64,000 bases of DNA from assembly GCF_016278385.1 (NCBI RefSeq), contig NZ_JADQBY010000028.1, positions 62,001-126,000 of the forward strand. Reading direction: 5' to 3'. Source of the DNA: Methanolobus sp. Its GTDB lineage: Archaea > Halobacteriota > Methanosarcinia > Methanosarcinales > Methanosarcinaceae. The translations under genes were made by a program, and so were the position numbers. How positions within the stretch are numbered: the stretch's first letter is position 1; every line of letters begins with the position of its first letter. This document shows, one piece after another, positions 9,321 to 11,040 of this stretch. The notes beneath the pieces are model-generated. The model was not told the origin of the DNA, made no database searches, and was given only the letters and a program-made list of their open reading frames with translations.

Positions 9321-9689
9321 ATGCACAACGCAAACCTGTACAATTCACAATTAACAAATATCTCAGATTTCCTGAGAGATATAAAATATATTATTGTGTT
9401 TTATGTACTTGGAGACTTTCTGACAACCGCCCACGCCCTTAATTACGGATTCGAGGAAAATGATTTTCTTGCAGCAGTAATACAGGACTATGGTGTTAGC
9501 TCTCTTCTTATATTGAAGACATTGTTCCTGGTAATTGTTTACTGGAATTACAAAATACTCAAGGATTCAGATTCAAAATGGACGGATCTTCTGTGGGTCA
9601 CTGCCAGAAAGAGTATTGCGCTTGTGGGGTTGTTCCTGGTGGTGAACAATCTGATGGTCATTTCATGGAATGTAGCTTACTGCAGATAA
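9321..9689 (+). CDS. Small four-span membrane protein, DUF5658-like
   Basis: 122 residues with about three to four hydrophobic segments: IIVFYVLGDFLTTAHAL, SSLLILKTLFLVIVYW and IALVGLFLVVNNLMVI. The GDFLTTAHALNYGFEEN segment resembles the DLxTTxxxL..G..E.N motif of the DUF5658 family of small membrane proteins. The TATA box TTATATAC at 9291-9298 lies about 26 nt before ATG 9321, so the transcript is probably leaderless. A TGTACACAA sequence is repeated upstream (about 9214 and 9258). Function unknown. Confidence 0.65.
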   Translation: MHNANLYNSQLTNISDFLRDIKYIIVFYVLGDFLTTAHALNYGFEENDFLAAVIQDYGVSSLLILKTLFLVIVYWNYKILKDSDSKWTDLLWVTARKSIALVGLFLVVNNLMVISWNVAYCR

Positions 9690-9711
9690 TCCATATAATG
9701 ACCTTTTAACC

Positions 9712-9867
9712 AAAAACGGCATTAATAACGGAAAAACGGGATCAAAAACGGCGTTAAAAACGGAAAAACGAGATCAAAAAACGGCATTAATAACGGAAAA
9801 ACGAAATCAAAAACGGCGTTAAAAACGGAAAAACGGGATTGAAAAACGACGTTAAAAACGGAAATCC
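9712..9867. repeat. Tandem repeat, 32-bp unit, about 4.8 copies
   Basis: Four full units (9712-9743, 9744-9775, 9776-9808, 9809-9840) and a partial fifth (9842-9867). Each carries AAAAACGGC, then ATTAATAACGG or GTTAAAAACGG, then AAAAACGRRATY. The two central variants alternate (A, B, A, B, B), so there is also a 64-65 bp higher-order period, as expected from doubling of a two-unit block. The array starts 23 bp after the stop of the DUF5658-like gene. There are no unique spacers, so it is not a CRISPR array. Confidence 0.9.
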
Positions 9868-9872
9868 ACCAT

Positions 9873-10004
9873 TTATTTTTTATCCCAACTTTTTATTATC
9901 TTTTGTTCAAAGGATAACTTGTTGTCTATAATTTTATCTGTGATACTAAGATCTCCCAAGCTAACGCAGATTAAAGCATAGATTAATAAAAAGACAGGAA
10001 GAGA
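9873..10004 (-). pseudogene. Decayed member of the tiny membrane-protein family (copy 0)
   Basis: An open frame of 43 codons with no start codon, ending at TAA 9873-9875. It begins right after an in-frame TAA (10005-10007) and its first part reads SLPVFLLIYALICVSLGDL. This matches the family core of a Tyr, then Ser six residues later, then Gly two further on inside a hydrophobic span, as in the copies at 10044 and 10229. Upstream of the stop the same frame gives a basic KKRNLKKELDL stretch that would make a fitting N-terminus. I read it as a broken copy with a longer charged tail. Confidence 0.4.
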
Positions 10005-10043
10005 TTACAAATCCAGCTCTTTTTTCAGATTCCTCTTTTTAAT

Positions 10044-10151
10044 TTACGGAATCATTATCCCTGCCAGCATGCCAACTGATACTATCATCAGAAGATACAA
10101 CATAAAAACAAATAGTACCTTTATTGTATCTAAATTCGCATTTTCATTCAG
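10044..10151 (-). pseudogene. Tiny single-span membrane protein, copy 1, no canonical start
   Basis: The frame closes at TAA 10044-10046 and would be exactly 35 codons if read from CTG 10151, the same length as copies at 10229 and 10644. Key positions agree: Lys11, Tyr19, Ser25, Gly27 within a hydrophobic segment (VLFVFMLYLLMIVSVGMLAG). There is no ATG, GTG or TTG in the first 16 codons. It is therefore either a decayed copy whose ATG became CTG, or a rare CTG start. Confidence 0.4.
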
Positions 10152-10228
10152 GCAATATCATATAATTGAAGTCAGACAATTAATAGTTATGGACAGCTTT
10201 TTTTGAAATTATTGCGGTATCAAAGATA

Positions 10229-10336
10229 TTATCTGACAAGAGCTGAAAACAGACCAATAGATAACATGAGAAGGGCATATACAGACACCAGAAGTACAAT
10301 TTTCGACACAATTGAATTACCAGACTTGCCAAACAT
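10229..10336 (-). CDS. 35-residue single-span membrane protein, copy 2
   Basis: ATG 10336 to TAA 10229-10231. A short polar N-terminus (MFGKSGNSIVSK) is followed by one hydrophobic helix (IVLLVSVYALLMLSIGLF) and a short SALVR tail. Lys12, Tyr20, Ser26 and Gly28 align with the neighbouring copies. A perfect TATTTATATC box at 10361-10370 predicts a transcript starting 3-4 nt before the ATG. The identical decamer precedes the copy at 10644. No family name is recognised. Size and hydrophobicity recall bacterial type I toxins such as Ldr, but that is analogy only. Confidence 0.6.
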   Translation of the reverse strand: MFGKSGNSIVSKIVLLVSVYALLMLSIGLFSALVR

Positions 10337-10360
10337 AACAGTCCACAGAAACACATATTG

Positions 10361-10370
10361 GATATAAATA
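10361..10370 (-). promoter_or_regulatory. TATA box of 35-residue protein copy 2
   Basis: TATTTATATC read on the minus strand, centred about 29 bp before ATG 10336. It is the same ten bases in the same orientation as the box before the copy at 10644, preceded in both cases by a C (CTATTTATATC). Confidence 0.6.
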
Positions 10371-10411
10371 GATTTCCTAGCATGGCAAACTTACACCCAT
10401 AAGTTGCGATG

Positions 10412-10525
10412 TTAATGTTTTGGGTTATCTGCAAAGCCAAATTGAACAATTAATGCAGATATTAAAGTTAATATACTGACAATGAGAAGGGATAGTTGGT
10501 GGGGGATTATCTGGCTTTGCAACAC
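10412..10525 (-). CDS. 37-residue single-span membrane protein, divergent copy
   Basis: GTG 10525 to TAA 10412-10414. A polar start (MLQSQIIPHQ) precedes one hydrophobic segment (LSLLIVSILTLISALIVQF) and a polar DNPKH end. It shares architecture and a Ser in the second half of the span with the other tiny proteins, but lacks the Tyr and Lys. A GGGGTGAG ribosome-binding sequence lies 9 nt before the GTG, and TATATAA at 10543-10549 could serve as promoter. It lies between copies 2 and 3 on the same strand. Confidence 0.4.
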   Translation of the reverse strand: MLQSQIIPHQLSLLIVSILTLISALIVQFGFADNPKH

Positions 10526-10643
10526 CCTAATTAACTCACCCCTATATAATAACTGTCAAACTCTAAATAAGTGTTAAAAGAGTTGTTTTTGAGCTAATTT
10601 TGATTTTTTGCAAAGACAATAAGGAAAAGATCAGAGAAGCAAA

Positions 10644-10751
10644 TCACACATTTGCATAAGCTGCAAGCAGAGATGCACTCAATAACAGCACCAGATATAG
10701 CGATGCGATTACTCGAATTTTAAATGTGCTTGAAACACCGCAATCATCCAT
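10644..10751 (-). CDS. 35-residue single-span membrane protein, copy 3
   Basis: ATG 10751 to TGA 10644-10646. The N-terminus (MDDCGVSSTFKIR) is followed by a hydrophobic helix (VIASLYLVLLLSASLLAAY). Lys11, Tyr19, Ser25 fall at the same positions as in copy 1 and one off copy 2, and total length is the same 35 residues. TATTTATATC at 10781-10790 places transcription start about 8 nt before the ATG. With copies 2 and 1 it forms a tandem, separately promoted family. Function not known. Confidence 0.6.
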   Translation of the reverse strand: MDDCGVSSTFKIRVIASLYLVLLLSASLLAAYANV

Positions 10752-10780
10752 ACATACAATGATAAAACATAGCAAAAAAA

Positions 10781-10790
10781 GATATAAATA
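10781..10790 (-). promoter_or_regulatory. TATA box of 35-residue protein copy 3
   Basis: TATTTATATC on the minus strand, identical to the box at 10361-10370, centred about 34 bp before ATG 10751. Confidence 0.55.
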
Positions 10791-10879
10791 GCTAGTTAAA
10801 ATTGATAATTTATTAAAAAGTCAGCATACAAACCCAAGGATATAAATGAAGATATATGTAACAATCTTAACTAAAACAA

Positions 10880-10916
10880 AAAGAGAAAAGAATCCCGGAT
10901 AAACCGGGATTTAGGA
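10880..10916 (-). terminator. Terminator after tRNA-Asp
   Basis: On the minus strand an 8-bp perfect stem AATCCCGG / CCGGGATT with a 5-nt loop (10896-10916) is followed by a T-rich run (CTTTTCTCTTTTTG), just downstream of the tRNA 3' end. Confidence 0.65.
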
Positions 10917-10921
10917 ATTTA

Positions 10922-10994
10922 CGCCCGAACCGGGATTCGAACCCGGGTCGGAGCCTCGACAGGGCTCCATGATAGGCCTCTACACTATTCGGAC
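10922..10994 (-). tRNA. tRNA-Asp (GTC)
   Basis: The minus strand folds into a complete 73-nt cloverleaf: acceptor GTCCGAA/TTCGGGC, D arm with GTGTAGAGGCCTATCAT, anticodon stem GAGCC/GGCTC with loop CTGTCGA (anticodon GTC), T arm CCGGG-TTCGAAT-CCCGG and discriminator G73, as expected for Asp. CCA is not encoded. A TATA box (TTTATATAC) lies about 50 bp upstream, between it and tRNA-Tyr. Confidence 0.97.
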
Positions 10995-11040
10995 ATATTA
11001 TGATATTTCGCTTGTGAGCACCCCTAAAAGGCCGCTCTTG

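What the first reader, a model, noticed from the sequence alone, without database searches (positions are those of the whole stretch)
9873..10751. Tandem family of 35-residue single-span membrane proteins in an apparently empty kilobase
Seen: on the minus strand of a region with no normal gene there are two intact 35-codon frames (10229-10336, 10644-10751), a 37-codon divergent frame (10412-10525) and two decayed ones (10044-10151, 9873-10004). Four of the five (all but the 37-codon one) share a Tyr inside one hydrophobic helix and a Ser six residues later. Lys11/Tyr19/Ser25 are at identical places in copies 1 and 3 and one position later in copy 2. Gly two after the Ser occurs in three. Copies 2 and 3 each have the same TATTTATATC box and a 3-8 nt predicted leader. 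DNA similarity is low while the protein pattern holds, which suggests selection on the peptide. Inference: a new small-protein family, possibly toxin-like, signalling or an accessory membrane subunit. The size matches bacterial Ldr toxins only by analogy.
Basis: partly seen in the sequence, partly recalled or inferred. Interest (0 to 1): 0.72.

Follow-up and report, generated by a model that had tools for sequence, protein, structure and literature searches.

The report
New 35-residue membrane microprotein family, Methanolobus

Summary
Three of the five claimed frames are genuine genes: A 10644-10751, B 10229-10336, C 10044-10151 (minus strand). With every window-genome sequence left out of the profile they are still the top three of about 1,850 window ORFs (35-45 bits; next best 7). 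Frames 10412-10525 and 9873-10004 are not members. A, B and C form an array between tRNA-Tyr/tRNA-Asp and a DUF5658-like gene, conserved in synteny in at least 14 Methanolobus genomes and under purifying selection (64 amino-acid differences against 129 expected, 11 chosen pairs). Window copy C has lost its start codon. Further stand-alone members lie at other loci (1-9 copies per genome, 20 of 27 genomes of the genus) and in one other genus; almost none beyond. Signature: K/R-x7-Y-x2-M/L-x2-S/A-x4-[AS][GA]. Charges suggest N-in topology, and a TATA box suggests leaderless or very short-leader mRNA. No Pfam, NCBIfam or PDB relative was found. A promoter test with a working positive control finds no antisense promoter at the 3' end, and no partner gene recurs, which counts against a classical type I toxin. 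Best reading: separately controlled single-span microproteins tuning larger membrane proteins. Existence is secure; mechanism is about even odds and untested.

The parts
10644..10751 (-). Copy A, MDDCGVSSTFKIRVIASLYLVLLLSASLLAAYANV; most diverged of the three from its orthologues
   Evidence: 35.2 bits to a profile without window-genome sequences; orthologues at the same position
10229..10336 (-). Copy B, MFGKSGNSIVSKIVLLVSVYALLMLSIGLFSALVR; intact in all 14 genomes with the array
   Evidence: Single-sequence search, 44-69% identity in 14 genomes at this locus; selection; one helix, residues 4-34
10044..10151 (-). Copy C, (CTG)LNENANLDTIKVLFVFMLYLLMIVSVGMLAGIMIP; start codon lost, body preserved; probably a recent pseudogene
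   Evidence: 44.8 bits to a profile without window-genome sequences; start compared with relatives
10781..10790 (-). TATA box of A (TATTTATATC), 29 nt before its ATG
   Evidence: Sequence; promoter region conserved, 0.78-0.85 identity at 10781-10820
10361..10370 (-). TATA box of B (TATTTATATC), 24 nt before its ATG
   Evidence: Sequence; the 40 nt before B differ by 28% between species against 69% at -100 to -61
10178..10187 (-). Weak TATA-like stretch (CTATTAATT region) before C
   Evidence: Sequence and alignment with relatives; assignment is an inference
9712..9873 (-). Array of CGTTTTT tracts after C, terminator-like; U-rich tracts also present at this place in relatives
   Evidence: Repeat search; relatives; terminator role inferred

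Best explanation
A, B and C are a tandem array from a lineage-specific, multi-copy family of 35-38-residue single-span membrane proteins. Shown from sequence: paralogues conserved in synteny, selection on the peptide, an upstream TATA box at a roughly fixed distance, one hydrophobic helix with a near-invariant Tyr, and loss or decay of individual copies. Inferred: N-in/C-out topology from charge, leaderless or very short-leader mRNA from TATA spacing, and the mechanism, which is that the helices pack against larger membrane protein(s) or each other and tune activity or stability, with separately promoted copies supplying similar regulators under different conditions. It would work like bacterial small membrane regulators and accessory subunits (KdpF, CydX, AcrZ; general knowledge) and like the stand-alone small proteins acting on the Methanosarcina Mtr complex, without membership in any of those families.
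For: Relatives found with B alone; synteny; window-excluded profile ranks A, B, C first; 64 against 129 expected amino-acid differences and codon-position pattern; dispersed members; rare matches outside two genera; Tyr in 39/40, K/R in 38/40, M/L in 40/40; N-side charge excess in 64 of 79 genes, reverse in 1; single helix; TATA signal 7.1 bits fitted and 6.0 held out against 5.0 +/- 0.2 for the same fit on shuffled windows. Precedent that stand-alone small proteins modulate a methanogen membrane complex: PMC12774963, PMC13370731.
Against: No partner identified and no neighbour shared by the groups. No transcript, ribosome or protein evidence is available. Conservation shows no significant helical face (p = 0.24). 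A and C are lost or broken in several species, so at least those copies are dispensable.
Confidence: 0.5

Rival explanations
1. A membrane-active toxin family of the type I kind (like Ldr, Ibs or DinQ), held down by an RNA or by promoter control.
For: Size, single hydrophobic helix, tandem and dispersed stand-alone copies in intergenic DNA, copy decay. Known type I toxins have this look (PMC8309996, PMC3567139).
Against: Antisense TATA score at the 3' ends equals shuffled (difference 0.02 +/- 0.24) while the sense positive control gives 2.62 +/- 0.25; over the ORF and 60 nt upstream a small excess (0.52 +/- 0.21) that the near-palindromic sense TATA box could produce. Leaders look too short for a structured 5' leader. 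An antisense RNA from another promoter type, or one acting in trans, is not excluded.
Confidence: 0.2
2. A secreted or surface-exposed signalling or antimicrobial peptide.
For: Short hydrophobic products in several variable copies.
Against: No exporter or immunity-like gene recurs beside them; the helix fills almost the whole chain.
Confidence: 0.08
3. A remnant or cargo of mobile or viral elements (for example holin-like genes).
For: Several loci per genome; the array sits beside tRNA genes.
Against: Conserved synteny across species for each group; PHROGs hits weak and scattered. A search of viral contigs with the alignment could not be run.
Confidence: 0.07
4. Chance open frames in AT-rich DNA, or DNA conserved for a non-coding reason.
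For: Holds for two of the five frames.
Against: Protein-level selection in A, B and C and paralogues at unrelated loci sharing the peptide pattern.
Confidence: 0.02

Closest known systems
Type I toxins (Ldr, Ibs, DinQ; PMC8309996, PMC3567139)
   Same: Length, single hydrophobic helix, tandem or dispersed copies in intergenic DNA
   Different: No antisense promoter signal at the 3' end, leaderless or very short-leader mRNA, archaeal, no sequence relation found
Small accessory or regulatory membrane proteins of bacteria (KdpF, CydX, AcrZ; general knowledge)
   Same: About 30-50 residues, one transmembrane helix
   Different: Those act on a known partner and often share its operon; here the genes stand alone and the partner is unknown; no PDB sequence match
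MtrI and MtrR of Methanosarcina mazei (PMC12774963, PMC13370731)
   Same: Stand-alone or previously unannotated small genes of the same archaeal family; MtrI likewise has variable genomic context
   Different: MtrI has 68 residues and binds MtrA/MtrCDE; MtrR has 49 residues and no transmembrane domain
M. mazei sORF_05 product (PMC11456600)
   Same: Small hydrophobic helical protein found in the membrane fraction
   Different: Lies with a trimethylamine permease operon; sequence not compared here

Membership tests
Type I toxin-antitoxin toxins | Antisense RNA expressed from the opposite strand or nearby | tested here: inconclusive
   No antisense TATA signal at 3' ends with a working positive control; small ambiguous excess over the ORF. 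Transcription itself not tested
Type I toxin-antitoxin toxins | Toxic on overexpression | not testable with these tools
   Needs an expression experiment
Type I toxin-antitoxin toxins | Sequence relation to a catalogued toxin or defence family | tested here: not met
   No Pfam or NCBIfam match near cut-off; one stray PADLOC hit, E 0.0032 in 1 of 40 members
Known small subunits of membrane complexes | Sequence match to a solved subunit | tested here: not met
   No PDB sequence at E up to 10; short helices can be missed by sequence search
Known small subunits of membrane complexes | Recurring genomic link to one complex | tested here: not met
   Neighbours differ between groups and, in group D, between species
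MtrI/MtrR | Sequence homology | not tested
   Their sequences were not aligned to this family
MtrR | Soluble protein without transmembrane helix | tested here: not met
   This family is one hydrophobic helix; MtrR reported without one
Protein-coding gene (as opposed to chance frame) | Substitutions constrained at the protein level | tested here: met
   A, B, C; 10 of 11 pairs individually below 0.01, one (B, G016/G024) not, P = 0.19

The most novel reading that the evidence does not exclude
A set of interchangeable single-span microproteins, each behind its own promoter at a different locus, acts as condition-specific swappable regulatory subunits of one shared membrane complex in Methanolobus and one related genus.
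Probability: 0.2. Interest if true: 0.75.

Novelty: new variant of a known kind. Interest (0 to 1): 0.5.

Why it matters
Archaeal small membrane proteins are largely unannotated. Comparative evidence alone defines this family (79 distinct genes collected), with promoters, likely topology and conserved residues, in a genus with cultured species. That makes direct tests possible and bears on how small proteins tune methanogen membranes.

Tried and rejected
Corrected during the work: the first ranking of window ORFs used profiles containing the window's own peptides, and the first TATA comparison (7.1 against 2.9 bits) scored a matrix on the windows it was fitted to, against shuffles that were not refitted. 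Both were redone and those figures replace them; members still rank 1-3, and the TATA excess is real but smaller (7.1 fitted, 6.0 held out, 5.0 +/- 0.2 refitted on shuffles, 5.5 refitted on -240..-203 windows). A Methanosarcina hit (L172) and hits inside long ORFs were set aside as probable chance.

Full report
Place. The region 9690-10900 lies between a DUF5658-like gene (9321-9689, plus; Pfam DUF5658 E = 0.0014, below cut-off) and tRNA-Asp (10921-10995), an intron-containing tRNA-Tyr and the AdoMet synthetase gene. Named records carrying the same neighbour gene show the genus is Methanolobus.

Observation. The frames exist as stated. A search with B alone found relatives at 44-69% identity in the genus (E 4e-9 to 1.5e-4). 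A, B and C recur in the same order in other genomes.

Which frames belong. My first ranking of window ORFs was partly circular, because the profiles contained the window's own peptides. With all five profiled window-genome sequences removed, the 35-row profile gives C 44.8, B 43.4 and A 35.2 bits; the next ORF has 7.2. The 37-codon frame scores 0.5 (rank 125) and the 9873-10004 frame -0.6 (rank 330). The DNA of the 37-codon frame has no match in the 26 other genus genomes; it can fold as a hairpin (z = -2.6). Copy C lost its start by one extra base and ATG to CTG; use of CTG cannot be excluded.

Selection. I picked 11 orthologue pairs, disjoint within each copy, after seeing the pairwise distances. 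They show 64 amino-acid differences against 129 +/- 5.5 when the same substitutions are placed at random (z = -11.9); 10 pairs are individually below 0.01 and one, B G016/G024, is not (P = 0.19). The pairs are disjoint but share ancestry across copies, so z is a guide, not an exact probability. Over all pairs, pN/pS is 0.56 (A), 0.45 (B) and 0.30 (C), with third positions varying most; synonymous sites are near saturation, so these ratios understate the constraint.

Copy turnover. B is intact in all 14 genomes with the array. A is a remnant in G024; C is broken in G005 and G022 and start-less in the window. G002 and G016 carry extra A-type copies. In G017, tRNA-Asp and the DUF5658-like gene are close together and no member was found.

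Family. Profile A1 found members at other loci in the order. They form synteny groups D, E, F and G plus singletons. A second profile that includes them finds 1-8 per genome in 20 of 27 genus genomes (up to 9 at the looser cut-off). Their E-values under that second profile are inflated because many are in it; the discovery values are those. In a sample of 295 genomes of the phylum only two others match, inside ORFs of 361-372 codons.

Anatomy. Tyr in 39 of 40 aligned members, K/R eight before it in 38, M/L three after it in 40, S/A six after it in 31. K+R averages 1.8 on the N side and 0.34 on the C side. AlphaFold2 on the single sequence gives one helix, residues 4-34, mean pLDDT 89.

Promoters. 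My first TATA figure (7.1 against 2.9 bits) compared a matrix fitted to the real windows with shuffles that were not refitted. Done fairly, fitted 7.1 and held-out 6.0 stand against 5.0 +/- 0.2 for the same procedure on shuffled windows and 5.5 on windows 200 nt further upstream. The enrichment holds but is more modest. Position adds support: the box mostly begins 37-44 nt before the core start, and the block before B is conserved. The same matrix on 220-nt windows detects the sense promoter (2.62 +/- 0.25 above shuffled) and nothing on the antisense strand at the 3' end (0.02 +/- 0.24). Over the ORF and 60 nt upstream there is a small excess (0.52 +/- 0.21), which the near-palindromic sense box could cause.

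Function. No library names the family. Neighbours differ by group: a cbb3-like oxidase and NorQ or a VIT-VWA protein (D), AIM24 or a mechanosensitive channel (E), nicotinate phosphoribosyltransferase (F). The regulator model is an inference from stand-alone arrangement, conservation and precedent (PMC12774963, PMC13370731, PMC11456600). The toxin model is weakened, not excluded.

Limits. No expression data. Profiles of 35 hydrophobic residues are sensitive to composition. Start codons and the identity of g25 are inferences.

Noticed in passing
L067, L068, L070, L065, L063, L064 (gap between A and B); absent from the window: A conserved element of about 170 nt in six species, with a palindrome like AATGTTAC-N14-GTAACATT before a TATA-like stretch and a 14-pair closing helix around about 105 nt; covariation is suggestive only (47 of 500 shuffles reach the score). 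No Rfam match.
   Followed up: partly
L184, L185, L186, L180: The first part of that element, including the promoter-like palindrome, has weaker partial matches (E 3e-5 to 2e-4) at a second locus near flavin reductase-like and FmdE-like frames (names from reading the sequence).
   Followed up: partly
L135:5171-8020: A 949-residue protein fusing COX1, FixO and cbb3 subunit III domains beside group D in three Methanolobus genomes, unexpected in a methanogen.
   Followed up: no
window 9712-9873: Tandem repeats with a 32-33 nt period, read as CGTTTTT tracts on the minus strand, also present in relatives after a conserved GGTGGATTT.
   Followed up: partly
L011:337-1346 (G002): Two transposase-like frames (IS630-like by reading the sequence) inserted between B and the DUF5658-like gene.
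   Followed up: no
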